From Tetmemena sp. SeJ-2015 (Eukaryota; Ciliophora; Spirotrichea; Sporadotrichida; Oxytrichidae), in the NCBI GenBank assembly GCA_027382625.1, contig JAJKFJ010021035.1:1-64000 (forward strand): DNA of 64,000 nt. The letters run 5' to 3'. A program made the translations under genes and the position numbers. This document shows positions 44,660-63,559 of the stretch, piece after piece; within the stretch, counting starts at the first letter, position 1, and the number at the start of each line of letters is the position of its first letter. The notes under the pieces were generated by a model. That model saw nothing but the letters and a program-made list of their open reading frames with translations, did not search any database and was not told the origin of the DNA.

Positions 44660-45060
44660 AGTCTACTAGAAGAACTTGTGCTTTCCCTGTGCTGCTGAGA
44701 AAATGGGCATGTTCTTGGTTTAGAGTGCTGCTCCATCCTTGATGTTGATCTTTGACTAGTGAAAAACAGAACCAGGTGTCATAGGTAGTGAAACCTACAG
44801 CGCCCTTGTTTTGGAAAGTCGCTTAGGGTAATCTTGTGCTGTTTTCTTTCTCTCGTTTTACTCTTGTCTTTTTTTGCTTCTCTCTGCTACTTCTTTCTTT
44901 TTTTTGTTTCCTTCTTTTCTTCTTTGCTCTTTCTGCTTTTTTGTGTGTCCTATCTCCTCTGCTGTTTTTCTTTTCTATTCTTTTTTTGCTTCTTTTCATT
45001 TCGTGACTCTTTGCGCTCTTTTTTTCTGTATTCTTTCTTCCTCTTCGTCATCCTCAAAAA
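44660..45060 (-). CDS. Highly charged Lys/Arg/Glu-rich reading frame
   Basis: The minus strand is extremely A/G-rich and encodes Lys/Glu/Arg in all frames, then TRLPQATFQNKGAVGFTTYD and FSLVKDQHQGW. The second part looks like protein; the first may be coding low complexity. The hydrophobic plus-strand ORFs (44834-45076) are its shadow. Start not identified; it abuts the satellite. Confidence 0.35.
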
Positions 45061-45061
45061 A

Positions 45062-48000
45062 ATGATCACCTTATGAGAGGAAACAGACAGATTAAGGATC
45101 GAGGATTGGAACTTAGGTCGACGTATTTTTGAAGACCTAATGCTTGAGATTTTTAAAAGGATAACTCAATTTGCTGCTCGGACAGGAAAAGCATAATTTC
45201 ACTTTTTCGAAAGTTAAGAAGATAACCCAGGCGGAACTTTATCTTGGACCGCGAGCTCTAAAAATACACCGTTATGTAAGAGAGGAAAAGATTAAGGATC
45301 AAGGATTGAACTTTAATCGACGTATTTTTGAGATCTTAATGCTTAAGATTTTTAAGGAAAACTCAATTTGCCTCTCGACAGCCAACTAATTGTCACTTTT
45401 CAGAAGTTAAAAGAAAACCCAGGGGAACTTTATTCTCGCACTCAAAAATGATCACCTTATGAGAGGAAACAGATTAAGGATCGAGGATTGAACTTTAGTT
45501 CGACGTATTTTTGAGATTCTGAATGCTTGAGATTTTTTTAAGGATAACTCAATTTTGCCTCTCGACAGGATGCAAACTAATTTCACTTTTCAGAAAGCTT
45601 AAAAATAACCCAGGGAAACTTAATTCTTCGCCTCAAAGAATGATCACCTATGATGAGAGAACGATTAGGATCGATAAATTGAAATTTAGTCGACGTATTT
45701 TTGAGAATCTTAATGCTTGAGAATTTTTAAGGATAACTTCAAATTTGCCGTTTCTTCGACAGCAAAACTATTTCACTTTTCAGAAGTTAAATACATTAAG
45801 AACTTTTAATTCTTCGCACTTTTAATGTGAGGTAGTGAGAGAGAACAGATTAGGGATCGAGGATTGAACTTTAAGTCGACGTATTTTTGAGATCTAATGC
45901 TTGAGATTTTTAAGGCAGCACACTAATTTCACCTTTTTCCATAAGTTAAGAAATTAACCCCAGGGGGGAACTTTAATTCTTCGCACTCTAAAATTTGAGT
46001 CACCTTATGAGAGAGAACAGATTTAAGAGATCGGAAGAGCGTCGTATTTAGTCGAACGGTATTTTTGAGATCTTAAGGCTTGAGATTTTTAAGGATAACT
46101 CAATTTGCCTCTCGACAGCAAACTAATTTCAGCTTTTCGAAGTTAAAAAAAACCCCTAAGGGAACTTTATTTCTTCGCACGTCAATAAATGATCACCTAC
46201 ATGAGAGAGAAAGATTAAGGATGCGAAGACTTGAGACTTAGTCGAACGTGATTTTTGAGGATTTAATCGCTTAAGTGATTTTAAGGATAACTCGAATAGT
46301 TTGCCTTCTCGTAAGCAAAAATTTCACTTTCAGAAGTTAAAAATAACCCAGGGGAATTTATTCTTTGCACTCTATAATGATCACCTACTTATTTGAGAGA
46401 ACAGATTTAAGAAATTCGATAATTGATACTTTAGTTGACGTAATTTTTGTAGATCATAATGCTTGCAGATTTTTAAAAGTGATAACTCATTTGCCTCTTC
46501 GACAGTCAACTACTTTCAACTTTTCCAGAAAGTTAAATAATAACCCAGGGGAATTTTATTCTTCGCACTCTAAATGAATCACCGGTTATGAGAGACGAAC
46601 TAGATTAAGGATCGAGGATGTTGAACTTTAAAGTCGACGTATTTTTGAATGAATCTTAATGCCTTGAGATTTTTAAGGATAAACTCAATTTGCTCTCGAC
46701 AGCAAACTAAGAATTTCACTTTTCAGAAAGTTAAAAATAACCCCAGGGAAACTTTATTCTTCGCCACGTGTCAAAAATGATACCACTACTTATAAAGCCA
46801 GACACATGATTGAGGGTATTCGAGTAGAGATAAGTTGACTAAGCGCGTTAATATCGACTATTTTCATTACGAGTAATGATCAGGTCGAAATTGTCATGTG
46901 ATGGAATTTTTAAGTGATATGAAAGATAGTTCAACTAGCTGGACGCCATGACGTCGACTACAGACAAATCACACAAATACTACTTGGTATCAGTAAGATT
47001 ATGACCTAATAGTGATTTCCTACCCCAGGGGATATCCTGTAGTGTCTTCGCATGTCGTCAACACACTCGCAAAAAGATCACCGTTAAGATAGCAGCATGG
47101 AAGAAAATGATTAGAGATGTGTAGGATTGGAACTTCACTCAGTCGATCGTATTTGTTGAGATCTTCAATGCTTGAGATTTTAAGAGGGGGTAAGTAGAGG
47201 CAATTTGCCTCTCAGATTTCCGCATCATGTTCGGTCTGAGAGAAAATTCTCAACTCTTATCCGTATCTAGAAGTTCCAACCATTATTATACACACTTCCC
47301 TATGGTGCTGTATGACTTAAGTGTACTTTGCGGCATACGCCATAGATAACTCGCATCACCCTACATAGAAGAAGATATAACCAGGAAATTCAAAATCTCG
47401 TTAAATTGGAGGATACCTATGTTAGATACGACACGATATCAGCCTTGCAAGAGTATTATACATGCTTGTGATTTTAAGGATAACTCAATTGCCTCTCGAC
47501 AGCAAACTTATTTCACTTTCAGAAAAAGTTAAATAACCCCAGGGGGAACTTTGATTCTTCGCACTCAAAAGTGATCACCGTATGAGAGAACACGATTTTA
47601 AATCGAAAATTGAACTTGGTAGTTCGACCGTATTTTTGAGATCTTATGCTTGAGATTTTTAAGGATAACTCATATTTGCCTCTCGACAGCAAAATAAATT
47701 TCACTTTTCAGAAGTTAAAAATAACCAGGGGAACTTTATTCTTCGCACTCAAAAAATGATCACTTAATGAGAGAGAACAGATTAAGATCGGAAGAGCACA
47801 GCTTTATCCGACTGTATTTTTTGAGATCTTAATGCTTGAGATTTTAAGGATACCTCAATTTGCCTCTCGACATGCAAACTATTTCAACGACTTTTCAAGA
47901 AGTTAAAAATATACCCCAGGGGAATTATGTAAAGTAGAGCACTAGAAATATCAACTTAATTTACTTAAATCTTTCTAGCATTTATTCGACGTTTTTTGAA

Positions 48001-48763
48001 GATCTTATGGGCTTGAGCTTTATAAGGCAGGCAAACTAATTTCACTTTTCGAAGTTAAAAATAACCCCAGGGGAACTTTATTTCTTCGCACTCTAAAATG
48101 ATCCAGATTATGAAGGAGAACAGATTAAGGATCGAGGATTTGAACTTTAGTCGACGTATTTTTGAGGTCTTAATGCTTGAGATTTATAAGGCAGCAAAAC
48201 TGAATTCAACTTTTCAGAAGTTAAACATAACCCTGTAGAATTTTTATTTCTTTTCGAAAAAATGGGACAAGATTTAGGAGAGAGGAACAGATTAATGGGA
48301 ATCGAGGATTGAACTTCAGTCGACGTATTTTGAGATCGTTAATGCTTGAGATTTTATAAGCAGCAAACTAATGTTCACTTTTCAGAAGCTTAAAAGAAAA
48401 TAACCCAGGGGATACTTTATTCTTTCGCACTTCTAAAATGATCACTCTTATGAGAGAGAACAGATGTTGCTAAAATCGATAATTGAACTTTAGTCGACGT
48501 ATTTTTGAGATCTCTATGCTTGAGATTTTTAAAGGATAACTCAATTTGCCTCTCGACACGCAAAACGCAATTTCACTTTTCAGAGTTAAAAATAACCCCA
48601 GGGTACTTTTAGTTGTCTTCGCACATCAAAAGGAATATGATCACTTAAAGAGAGAAGAGATCAAGTCTGGAGGAGGTTGAACTTTTAAGTCGACGTATTT
48701 TCTGAGGTCTTAATGCTTGAGAAATGTTATATAGGCAGCAAAACTAATTTCAACTTTTCAGTG
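45062..48763. repeat. Satellite array B, ~190-bp unit
   Basis: About 18 copies of a unit containing 'gatcacctta', 'attaaggatcgaggattg', 'gtcgacgtatttttgagatc', 'gcttgagatttttaagg', 'ctcgacagcaaacta' and 'aataacccaggggaac'. Copies differ mostly by 1-2-bp indels. A stretch at ~46780-47440 is badly scrambled compared with the unit. Adapter-like strings occur at 46028-46045 and 47785-47800. No gene. Confidence 0.95.
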
Positions 48764-60519: not shown

Positions 60520-60940
60520 TAATTCTTCAGTCCCTCTTTCGAATGAGTGCCGCTACATTAGGCTCCAATTTCGAGGAAAAATGATTTCATTAGAACGCAA
60601 TATATGAGCCATTTGCCGAGGTCCTCGAGATGACCTACACAGACTTCCCTGACCTAGCTCCCTTGTGAAAAGGATTTAAGCTAAACGTAAAGATAAACAT
60701 ATGCATCTGGGTTCTCCTTCTTTAGCATGGGATACCTAAGGATTGGCTTGGATTGCTCCGAAATAAATTAAAGCCAAAAACCGAGCCCTACCCTCCTGTT
60801 CAACCTAGCTCCCTTCAGAGAGCTGTTTGAGCTTTGTAGTAAGATAAAGAAGTCTAGAGGGCTTCTCCCTCTTTCAAATGAGTGCCGCTATGTTCGGCTC
60901 AGATTCCTAACAAAAAGTCTTCATTAAAACGAACTCCTTT
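60520..60940. repeat. Diverged direct repeat, two ~335-bp units
   Basis: 'ccctctttcgaatgagtgccgct' (60531) recurs as 'ccctctttcaaatgagtgccgct' (60868), and 'acctagctcccttgtga' (60652) as 'acctagctcccttcaga' (60805). About 80-85% alike over the parts compared by eye. Confidence 0.6.
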
Positions 60941-61430
60941 ATTATAAAGTTTTATATATTCTTTTTATTAAAATTCTTAGTGTTTCTTCCTTAGGGAGAT
61001 GGATTTGAATTCTTCAACTTAGTTTCACACCTACAAGACCACTTCATGTAATAAGACTAGTGCAAGATAGGTTGAAACCTATGAAATTTAAAGTTAATTG
61101 TAGGTTTTAACTATTAAGTTGAGTGAACTGTATCATCTTTTTGGGTGCCCAAGCCAAGATCTTCAATGATTCAGCTAAATACTAAATACTTATTTTTAAT
61201 GTTATAGGGTGAATATGAATTATAGGATGAATACGAAAGTATGATCGTCGGTAGGTAGAAATACGAAATAAAAGAATACAGATTACCTTTACTGAGAGCC
61301 AATGATTATTCTACCGTTAGAATCCCCTTAGATTTTAAAGGTTAATGGCTTGGTAATTCTGTTGATTTAATAAATATATCTAATAGACCAGAAAATGATT
61401 AATTATTAATGATCTTATCCCATTATTTTA

Positions 61431-61512
61431 TTGGTGGAATGGTTTAAATTCGAGCGTATCAATAATCTAAAAATCACACTCTATTTTCCACCATTCCACC
61501 ATTCCACCAATA
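61431..61512. repeat. Left hairpin with iterated CCATTCCAC motifs
   Basis: TTGGTGGAATGG (61431-61442) can pair with CCATTCCACCAA at the end of 'ccaccattccaccattccaccaa' (~61489-61511). The iterated motif gives alternative pairings. The counterpart at the right end is 63197-63285. Confidence 0.7.
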
Positions 61513-61732
61513 TGAAGCGAACTCAAACATGCCTACTAGTTTAACATTCTAATGTAAATCTTAAACTATTAATAAATTTAGGGTTGCAAATAACATAGAC
61601 TACTCAGGAGGGCTCTAATAGGACAAATATGCAAGCCAAGTTGAATGTGAGATCATAAATAGCCACTCGCTGATTGCTGCTTCCTTCCTCCTATGAGGCT
61701 TCTTGAGAGTACGCAGCAGTGAAATCCTCTGT

Positions 61733-63026
61733 CTAATCGCTCACCCTGTTTATCGGGAGCTCGTCCTTGATCAGCCTGTCCTCGAAGTAGTTCGCGAGCT
61801 GCATGCACGTGAGAGGGAAGCCCTGGCAGCCCTTCCTTCCCTCTCGTCTCATCTTCACAAATACTGCTCTGTTCTTGAAGGACTCCAGGTGCTCGCCCTT
61901 GACAAACTCCAGTGGGTAGTCGTTCGAGGACACAATGACTTTGCAGCCCTGGTATCTGACTTCAGCTGCGCTGTGCTTGATGTTCACTGGATAGCCTTCG
62001 CCCTCCATAAGTAGTTTCATTTTCGCTATGTTTTGCCTACTCAAGAAGTGAGGCATGTTGATCTCTTTCATTGTTACTATTGATGGTGAGACTCCCTCAA
62101 CCTTCTGGTTTACGATGAATTGTGATGATGCGTCCAGGAGCTTCTCGCACACAAATATCTCCTGGATGAAGCCTATAAGAGTTGATTTGCCAGCATTAGA
62201 GTCGCCATGCATCCAAAGCACGCATTTCTTCTAGTTGACGAGACCAAAATCACCTTGTAAAGTCCGTCCAATGCCTCCAATAAATTGTTCTCCTTCAATT
62301 ATTCGTCCGTCACCCTCTTGCCGGCATCCTTGGCCCTCTTAGCATGTTGATATCGGCTCTCAATGTACAACTGCAGCTGATCTAGTAAAGACTGCGCCTT
62401 TCAAGCTAAAGAATGCCTGCCTTTTAAAGCTCTGATACGTGAATTTCAAGTACCATTTTCTCTCGGGCCAACCTTGAAATCTTTACGTCGTCGTCCAAGC
62501 TCTACTAGTACAGATCGCTGAAAGATCTGGCTTCTCCCGATTTAAGCTAGGCCAGAGAATCCATTACGGCCTTGCTTTCCTATTTTTCTTCGGCCGAGCT
62601 TGTGCTGAGTCTCGTAGGGCCACTCTATTCCCTCTTGGTTATTAAGACATTGAGAATGCGGTCCTCTCGTCCTCTGAGCATACGTAAGCCCCCCGTAGCT
62701 TGTACTAGATTCCTGATTTCTCTCTCAGATATGTTCTTAGCCGGGATCTACAAGTTGTGTATAGCCTGGCAGCCGAGATATCGTTCACTATTGAAATAGC
62801 TCTTGGAGAGGCTGTTTACCTTGGGCTTGACAAATAGAGCCATGTATTATGTCTCGTCTCCTTTGACTTCGAAGAAATTGACGCTCTCTACTTCCTTGAC
62901 CTCTTTCATCAAGTCTCTCTCAATCTCGAACAGTGATTCCTGCTTGACCTCTTCAGTAATTCTGAAGAAGAACTAGTTTCTCTTGTTTTAATCTTTCACA
63001 AACATAGCCTTCTTGCTGGACTCCAT
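61733..63026 (-). CDS. Replication-associated protein with superfamily-3 helicase domain
   Basis: ATG 63024-63026 opens MESSKKAMFVKDQNK. The N-terminal ~200 residues are open with TAG/TAA as Gln; no clear HUH endonuclease motif is visible. Frame changes lie near 62455 and 62410. The helicase part (62250-61733) is intact: Walker A GDSNAGKST, a Walker-B-like region around IVTMKEINMP, and a motif-C-like KVIVSSNDYPLEF, in the spacing of SF3 helicases of CRESS-DNA, parvo-like and related Rep proteins. The stop is at 61733. The stretch GTGATTTTGGTCTCGTCAAC (62237-62259 with TAG) could be a 23-nt intron that keeps frame before KKCVLWMHG. It is the only gene of the flanking inverted-repeat element. 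Confidence 0.75.
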
Positions 63027-63559
63027 TTTGGTTTTTATAGATGAGAGCACTTCTCCCTGTCTTAACTTAAAGGAGCTTTGAATGTTTAAAAATCGTAGTA
63101 ACCCGAACCGACCTGGTTCATTTATCCTTCCGAAATAATATATTTCAATTTGTACAGATAATTAAGATATCTATTTTCAACCTTAGGACATTACAGTTTT
63201 GGTGGATTGGTGGATTGATGGAAATTGAAGTGTGCTATTTAAAAATGGGTACGCCCGAATTTAAACCATTCCACCATTAAACCAATTAGTATTAGTCATT
63301 TAATTAATTAAGATGGGTTTGATCAGAAAGGATATACTAATAATAATCTGATAGGCTAAAGTTTGAAATCCTCACTCTTTATCAGTGCGAGCGGAAACAC
63401 ATTTGTATATACCTAAAATTACTTCAGACTTTATTTATTTCGTATTTCTACCAACCGACGATCATCCTTTCGTATTCATCCTATAATGATAGAGGGTAAG
63501 CAAAACCTAATCAAGATAGGTAACAGGAGAAAAGTGATATATATATTAAATTATAGATA

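What the first reader, a model, noticed from the sequence alone, without database searches (positions are those of the whole stretch)
61219..63487. Nested-inverted-repeat element carrying a single SF3-helicase Rep gene
The sequence shows two concentric pairs of inverted repeats, hairpin-forming iterated motifs at both ends, and one gene with a clean SF3 helicase core (Walker A GDSNAGKST, KVIVSSN). Known ciliate germline elements are mostly Tc1/IS630, piggyBac or LINE types. A Rep-type helicase with hairpin termini suggests a replicative element, an integrated small DNA virus relative or a plasmid, possibly of a new kind. The N-terminal part lacks an obvious HUH nuclease. Origin and mobility are inference.
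Basis: partly seen in the sequence, partly recalled or inferred. Interest (0 to 1): 0.88.

Follow-up and report, generated by a model that had tools for sequence, protein, structure and literature searches.

The report
Transposon-like element carrying a replication helicase
In a ciliate genome, a large family of small mobile DNAs carries only a virus-like DNA-unwinding gene between transposon-type ends, and the ends appear to have been swapped between family members; this looks like a type of mobile element not described before.

Summary
The window copy is a 2.26 kb element (61223-63483) between two TA dinucleotides, with nested inverted repeats and one minus-strand SF3-helicase gene whose frame changes twice: a dead copy. 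The genome holds at least 143 helicase places (lower bound). Of 20 elements aligned at both ends, 38 of 40 junctions show TA; two sites have a perfect empty counterpart with one TA. The protein is under purifying selection between subfamilies, relaxed between recent copies. No relatives were found in the searched protein, viral, phage and prokaryote collections; no HUH motif or transposase was recognised. Subfamilies have their own iterons (8-bp period in most) inside the terminal repeats. Iteron type follows the helicase tree closely; terminal end type much less so. One element differs from near-identical kin mainly in its outer ~20-40 bp, at both ends. GNAT-like-gene elements, and palindromes without a recognised gene, carry the same ends. 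Best reading: a small replicon that replicates from its terminal repeats and is integrated at TA by transposases acting in trans, whose recognition ends it exchanges. Replication, the integrating enzyme and the life stage are inferred.

The parts
61221..61222 (.). TA flanking the left end (target duplication)
   Evidence: TA at 38 of 40 junctions of 20 relatives; perfect single-TA empty sites for two relatives
61223..63483 (.). whole element, 2261 bp
   Evidence: boundaries from comparison of copies
61223..61272 (+). left terminal repeat, outer part; the first ~20 bp are the exchangeable terminal cassette (type A end)
61422..61512 (+). left iteron/hairpin block (TTGGTGG units and their complement)
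61607..62272 (-). SF3 helicase domain of the Rep-like gene (Walker A GDSNAGKST, motif C KVIVSSN), own frame
   Evidence: motifs conserved in the alignment of ten relatives
62240..62400 (-). stretch where homology passes through a third frame: two frame changes, so the gene of this copy is broken (limits approximate)
62598..63026 (-). N-terminal domain (from the ATG), no HUH motif, unassigned by sequence; lies in an open frame 62310-63050
63197..63286 (+). right iteron/hairpin block
63434..63483 (-). right terminal repeat, outer part, with type A end
63484..63485 (.). TA flanking the right end
61202..61219 (+). extra degenerate 18-bp copy of the terminus just outside the left end (older element end or end duplication; not resolved)

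Best explanation
A family of small transposon-like replicons. The single protein (unassigned N-terminal domain, read as an origin-binding domain, plus SF3 helicase) binds family-specific iterons in the inner part of both terminal repeats and drives replication of the element. Copying within or between the folded arms keeps the two arms alike and now and then yields whole-element palindromes. Copies are put into TA sites by a transposase acting in trans (Tc1/mariner type the likeliest) that reads the outermost ~20-40 bp. Because recognition end and replication origin are separate modules, lineages change transposase by swapping the outer cassette. SHOWN by sequence: copies, TA at the junctions, empty sites, selection on the protein, co-variation of iterons with the protein, exchanged ends, palindromes, ends shared with another gene family. 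INFERRED: iteron binding, replication, the trans-acting enzyme, how ends are exchanged.
For: Copies: 150 rows (143 distinct places) scored of 329 candidate helicase places. TA at 38 of 40 junctions of 20 elements chosen for having matching ends on both sides; perfect empty sites for 2 of 20 sites (L033 at C505, 182/182; L019 at C3695, 180/180), 5 more with uninterrupted paralogous sites, best 81-94%. Selection: 20 pairs tested; 7 with dS>0.2 give dN/dS 0.06-0.17, 9 with dS<0.2 give 0.47-1.61, 4 saturated. Iterons: period 8 is the best lag in 13 of 18 arms. On the helicase tree nine iteron types need 8 changes, the minimum (8-10 if rows with tied motif counts are labelled the other way; shuffled labels at least 11), while four end types need 6 changes on the same 26 rows and 7 on 32 rows (minimum 3; shuffled labels at least 8). 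End exchange: L022 against the window copy, bases 121-240 115/120 on both sides, bases 1-20 12/20 and 11/20; L022 against the distant L040, bases 1-20 17/20 and 16/20. Arms: 12 of 21 loci have arms >=194 bp at >=96% identity; first 200 bp of 12 elements: >=0.98 within an element in 11, 0.67-0.89 between elements except one close pair at 0.99. Palindromes: L067 and L068 self-complementary over 1.3 kb at 92% and 87.5%, outer parts resembling a Rep element's arms, with different ends. SF3 assignment: DUF5906 up to E 1e-8, PPV_E1_C 7.6e-8, Parvo_NS1 2.7e-4.
Against: No transposase gene was found between matching ends: none of 8 DDE_3 loci carries them (<=3 substitutions), and by eye none of the 150 listed DDE_3 hits lies between a listed end pair (lists truncated). 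End types are not random on the tree either: 6 changes against at least 8 for shuffled labels, so exchange is repeated but not free. No extrachromosomal form or expression was examined. Arm identity also occurs in ordinary long-TIR transposons (gene conversion; recalled), and L022, L031, L039, L040 and L042 have arms of only 65-93%. The origin-binding role of the N-terminal domain has no sequence or structural support (structure jobs never ran). Iteron types were defined by me after seeing the sequences, and the three clade-1 arms (L039, L046, L047) show little 8-bp signal (lag-8 score reached by 7, 33 and 21 of 200 shuffles).
Confidence: 0.5

Rival explanations
1. Autonomous element: the protein itself, through an unrecognised nuclease in its N-terminal domain, cuts and inserts the element at TA, so no other transposase is needed.
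For: The gene is under purifying selection across subfamilies and is the only gene recognised in these elements. End types keep some tree signal.
Against: No HUH motif and no conserved His pair; only K79, F82, G89 and G123 are invariant in 15 N-terminal domains. End types change more often on the protein tree than needed, which is unexpected if the same protein recognises them. A gene family with no detected similarity to it uses the same ends.
Confidence: 0.2
2. Integrated viruses (parvovirus-, papilloma- or CRESS-like) or remnants of them.
For: SF3 matches to Parvo_NS1 and PPV_E1_C; iterons and long terminal repeats.
Against: No capsid or second gene recognised in 2.0-2.4 kb; no relatives found in IMG/VR or phages; TA at the junctions and single-TA empty sites; ends shared with another gene family.
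Confidence: 0.1
3. Split (multipartite) transposon: helicase elements and GNAT-like elements are complementary parts of one system, each carrying one gene and sharing ends, with a transposase part not yet seen.
For: A' ends occur on both gene families: of 29 listed A' end pairs, 5 hold a listed helicase hit and 11 a listed GNAT-like hit. A-ended elements carry a decayed relative of the GNAT-like protein. Both families have inner inverted repeats.
Against: Sharing of ends is also expected for two unrelated hitchhikers; no functional link was tested. The A-ended relatives were matched only in a small custom database (best E 1e-6) and are not among the rows of the genome search.
Confidence: 0.15
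4. Ordinary non-autonomous Tc1-type elements that captured a helicase gene with no role in their spread.
For: TA at the junctions; DDE_3 (Tc1-type) transposases abundant (150 scored of 921 candidates); a B-ended element with a SLOG-like gene fragment exists.
Against: dN/dS 0.06-0.17 between subfamilies and iterons that co-vary with the protein.
Confidence: 0.05

Closest known systems
Tc1/mariner transposons and TA-bounded ciliate eliminated sequences (IES; TBE, Tec)
   Same: TA at both junctions and a single TA at empty sites; type A and A' ends (TATAG...) resemble the weak IES consensus TAYAGYNR described for Paramecium (passage seen in PMC3464196).
   Different: No DDE transposase recognised in the element; a helicase gene instead; iteron-bearing arms up to ~460 bp; type B and C ends (TATTCT..., TATTGT...) do not fit the consensus.
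Parvovirus NS1 / CRESS Rep proteins
   Same: C-terminal SF3 helicase; terminal or origin repeats with iterons and hairpins (recalled for these viruses).
   Different: No HUH endonuclease motif, no capsid gene recognised; inserted at TA.
Papillomavirus E1 / polyomavirus large T type initiators
   Same: SF3 helicase (one of 8 members scanned matches PPV_E1_C above its cut-off) preceded by a domain without nuclease motif; short repeated sites (recalled for E1 and T).
   Different: Chromosomal TIR element; fold of the N-terminal domain not tested.
Bidnaviruses
   Same: SF3 helicase as a stand-alone protein and long terminal inverted repeats (passages of PMC4061559).
   Different: Bidnaviruses encode a type B DNA polymerase and a capsid protein; neither is recognised here.
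Polintons / Polinton-like viruses / virophages
   Same: Terminal inverted repeats and SF3 helicase (recalled).
   Different: Those are much larger (14-40 kb for PLVs, start of abstract of PMC12220804 in the listing) and encode capsid proteins and other genes (recalled).

Membership tests
Tc1/mariner transposon | TA target site duplication | tested here: met
   38 of 40 junctions TA; single TA at two perfect empty sites
Tc1/mariner transposon | terminal inverted repeats | tested here: met
Tc1/mariner transposon | encodes a DDE transposase (autonomous member) | tested here: not met
   only the helicase gene recognised; no DDE family in the Pfam scans
CRESS / parvovirus Rep | SF3 helicase domain | tested here: met
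   Walker A GK, a Walker-B Glu, motif C SN and an Arg invariant in ten proteins; DUF5906 up to E 1e-8, above cut-off in 3 of 8
CRESS / parvovirus Rep | HUH endonuclease (His pair and catalytic Tyr) | tested here: not met
   no conserved His in 15 N-terminal domains; candidate Tyr positions are F or C in some members; no HUH family hit. By sequence only.
CRESS / parvovirus Rep | capsid gene | tested here: not met
   one recognised gene in elements of 2.0-2.4 kb
E1 / large T type initiator | RRM-like origin-binding domain | not testable with these tools
   structure prediction queue was full at each of 24 attempts (first, last)
E1 / large T type initiator | short repeated binding sites at the origin | tested here: inconclusive
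   iterons exist and follow the protein tree closely; binding not tested
Polinton / PLV / virophage | capsid proteins, PolB, integrase | tested here: not met
   one recognised gene per element
Helitron | HUH Rep and SF1 helicase, no TIR or target duplication (recalled) | tested here: not met
   SF3 helicase, TIRs, TA junctions

The most novel reading that the evidence does not exclude
A new class of eukaryotic mobile element: a minimal replicon that outsources integration. Its initiator and iterons co-evolve as one module, while its transposase-recognition ends form a second, exchangeable module shared with an unrelated gene family (GNAT-like), so that together they form a modular, possibly multipartite, transposon system with fold-back replication.
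Probability: 0.35. Interest if true: 0.92.

Novelty: new variant of a known kind. Interest (0 to 1): 0.8.

Why it matters
DNA transposons are classified by their transposase. Here the conserved, selected gene is a replication-type helicase and the transposase signal appears to be a swappable part. If right, this links virus-type replication initiators and cut-and-paste transposons in one 2 kb element, shows how an element can change mobiliser, and gives a natural test system (iteron code against helicase clade) for how initiators recognise origins. It would also add two large families to the mobile DNA known from ciliate genomes.

Tried and rejected
Rejected: cellular helicase gene with introns (uninterrupted stop-to-stop frames of 447-550 aa across both domains in ten of the 40 loci read; transposon-like junctions). 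Rejected: transposase in the 2.76 kb A'-ended element C2042 (it is a decayed helicase element with an insertion). No Rfam match at gathering score, no tRNA. Led nowhere: three protein database searches, two with one sequence and one with alignment A1 (thresholds 1e-3, 1 and 1; searches scored only the 8000 candidates sharing most words), prokaryote genomes (412 pattern stretches, none confirmed), IMG/VR (125 stretches, none confirmed), phages, PDB by sequence (mostly P-loop regions, best a primase at E 0.0029; E 0.72 for the N-terminal domain), PHROGs (DNA primase families up to E 4.6e-10 for the helicase; at most 2 of 15 N-terminal domains matched any one family), NCBIfam (nothing above a cut-off). 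Papers: eight library searches; I saw listings and abstract openings, plus passages of four papers. In those listings I saw no SF3-helicase TIR element of ciliates; most subscription journals are not in that library. Structure prediction of the N-terminal domain was never accepted, so its fold is open.

Limits: iteron types were named after inspection. In one search five rows (L009, L011, L016, L024, L027) took their iteron label from their clade without a motif count; one search drops them (26 rows) and also tries the other label for rows with tied or contrary counts (L019-L021, L026, L030, L040, L042), giving 8, 9 and 10 changes. The tree has 34 inner branches, 12 well supported, 10 under 80; L051 and L037 fill under half of the columns. 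Loci L029-L048 were chosen for long frames, so intact frames are over-represented. One search uses 143 of the 150 rows (7 second pieces of places already listed were dropped) listed ends per type; a pair without a listed helicase hit can still hold a helicase gene (C2025, read as L037, is one). The low-dS pairs rest on few changes. The shuffles move two-base blocks.

Full report
WHAT IS IN THE WINDOW. Outer arms of 54 nt (96% complementary) and inner arms of 42 nt (86%) lie where stated; both inner blocks fold better than most shuffles (z -4.6 and -2.5). The gene is on the minus strand under the ciliate code (TAA and TAG read as Gln: 83 such codons in ten uninterrupted aligned frames; Gln is the commonest residue opposite, 115, with Glu close behind, 105). 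In this copy homology passes through three frames in turn, so it is a broken copy. The element proper is 61223-63483 between two TA. A degenerate extra copy of the terminus sits just outside the left end. C4454 carries the same insertion with the same 30-bp flanks, probably the other haplotype.

IT IS A FAMILY. The 72-bp terminus finds 40 scored places, many paired about 2.2 kb apart. The helicase piece gives 150 rows (143 distinct places) scored of 329 candidates, and the N-terminal piece 152 matches from 150 scored of 236, both lower bounds. I read 40 loci: 20 near relatives and 20 more distant ones chosen for long frames. Uninterrupted frames across both domains occur in ten: L022, L029, L032-L036, L039, L040 and L048. 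Ten aligned proteins share the SF3 motifs, including the invariant GK of Walker A, a Walker-B Glu, motif C SN and an Arg. Best curated matches: DUF5906 E 1e-8 (above cut-off in 3 of 8 proteins), PPV_E1_C E 7.6e-8 and Parvo_NS1 E 2.7e-4 (both above cut-off in one protein, L039). The N-terminal domain matches nothing convincingly and has no conserved His pair.

IT MOVES, INTO TA. Of 20 elements with matching ends on both sides, 38 of 40 junctions show TA; one side each of L029 and L048 does not. Joined flanks were searched against the assembly. Two sites have a perfect uninterrupted counterpart with a single TA (L033, 182/182; L019, 180/180). Five more (L046, L012, L014, L015, L021) have uninterrupted paralogues, best 81-94%, meaning they inserted into repeats. 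The other 13 gave no spanning match among the 40 rows that each search lists. Whether a perfect empty site is the other allele or a somatic, excised form cannot be told here.

THE GENE IS SELECTED. Of 20 helicase pairs, 7 with dS above 0.2 have dN/dS 0.06-0.17; 9 with dS below 0.2 have 0.47-1.61, on few changes; 4 are saturated. So spreading lineages keep the protein and inserted copies decay. A passive passenger gene would not show this.

TWO MODULES IN THE ENDS. The arms carry subfamily-specific iterons, with period 8 as the best lag in 13 of 18 arms. Against it: L037, L039, L042, L046 and L047 did not have 8 as the best lag. Motif counts mostly separate the subfamilies (TTGGTGG window group, TTGGTAC, TTGGTTC, TTGGAAC, TTGGAAT, ATGGACT, ATGGAAT, CTGACCA, CTGACTT), though L019-L021 and L026 carry TTGGTAC as well as TTGGTGG (L026 more of it) and L030, L040 and L042 have ties. 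On the helicase tree nine iteron types need eight changes, the minimum, or 9-10 with the other labels; shuffled labels need at least 11. Four terminal end types need 7 changes on 32 rows, or 6 on the same 26 rows, where three would do; shuffled labels need at least 8, so end types keep some tree signal but are exchanged repeatedly. Type A' ends occur in clades 1, 2 and 4 of the read loci, type B in clades 1, 2 and 3, type A in clades 2 (one decayed element, L051) and 4. The cleanest case is L022: against the window copy it matches 115/120 at bases 121-240 on both sides, but only 12/20 and 11/20 in the outer 20 bp; those outer bases match the distant L040 at 17/20 and 16/20. So the outer cassette was exchanged at both ends. 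Genome-wide pattern counts: A (20-mer, <=2 mismatches) 441, B (25-mer, <=2) 146, A' (28-mer, <=3) 108, reversed-pattern controls 0.

OTHER OWNERS OF THE SAME ENDS. Among 100 listed ends per type there are 17 A pairs (12 hold a listed helicase hit), 33 B pairs (18) and 29 A' pairs (5); 11 of the 29 A' pairs hold a listed GNAT-like hit. A pair without a listed helicase hit may still hold a helicase gene, as L037 does. Of such pairs these were read. (i) L066 (A' ends, 65 bp perfect arms) has a 435-aa frame with a sub-threshold GNAT match (E 0.0026) and Cys/His-rich parts; its family has 97 scored of 391 candidate places. It resembles decayed proteins in elements with A ends (C3895 and C2964 with both ends, C1842 with one; best E 1e-6 in a small custom database; C1802 only 0.005, ends); the genome search with L066 does not list these places. 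(ii) L067 (B ends) and L068 (A' ends) are palindromes over their whole 1.3 kb (92% and 87.5%), 82% alike inside but with different ends, and their outer arms resemble those of helicase element L037. (iii) Deleted or decayed forms of the helicase elements (L051, L053, L069) and L052, a B-ended element with a SLOG-like fragment.

ARM HOMOGENISATION. Within an element the first 200 bp of the two arms are at least 98% identical in 11 of 12 elements (L042 89%), but 67-89% between elements apart from one close pair. Together with exchange at both ends and palindromes this fits copying of one arm from the other. Gene conversion in an ordinary long-TIR transposon could do the same, so this is support, not proof.

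MECHANISM. I read it as an iteron-dependent replicon using its own helicase initiator, integrated at TA by transposases in trans. DDE_3 (Tc1-type) transposases are plentiful (150 scored of 921 candidates), and type A/A' ends resemble the Paramecium IES consensus TAYAGYNR (passage in PMC3464196). But no transposase with matching ends was found (eight loci; truncated lists compared by eye), and this is the main gap.

COMPARISON. It works most like a helicase-type initiator replicon and inserts like a Tc1-type element, but it fails defining tests of both parent families (no HUH or capsid recognised; no DDE gene recognised). No relatives were found in 5.8 billion proteins, IMG/VR, GTDB genomes or phages with the searches made. 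Those collections are poor in ciliate-code genes (my judgement), so absence there is weak evidence; other ciliate germline genomes were not available to search.

Noticed in passing
L066 (G000:C1880:81500-83560): A second large mobile family: GNAT-like gene with Cys/His-rich parts between A' ends (65 bp perfect), with its own inner inverted repeats; 97 of 391 candidate places scored; 11 of 29 listed A' end pairs hold it.
   Followed up: partly
L067 (C2298), L068 (C103): 1.3 kb elements without a recognised gene that are palindromes over their whole length, similar inside but with different end types.
   Followed up: partly
L052:120-1295 (C368): 1.18 kb B-ended element carrying a fragment that matches the SLOG/LSDAT family (PF18171, E 8e-8), possibly a captured host gene piece.
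   Followed up: no
window 45058-48529: Several tandem arrays of a 170-200 bp unit.
   Followed up: no
window 61202-61219: Extra degenerate copy of the 18-bp terminus directly outside the left end, perhaps the end of an older element.
   Followed up: partly
window 60531-60916: Pairs of diverged direct repeats (31 nt at 74%, 51 nt at 80%) spaced 151 and 335 bp.
   Followed up: no
whole window: Ten of the longer frames (237-356 aa) outside the element have no Pfam match at 0.01: gene-poor, as might be expected for germline-limited DNA, but not tested.
   Followed up: no
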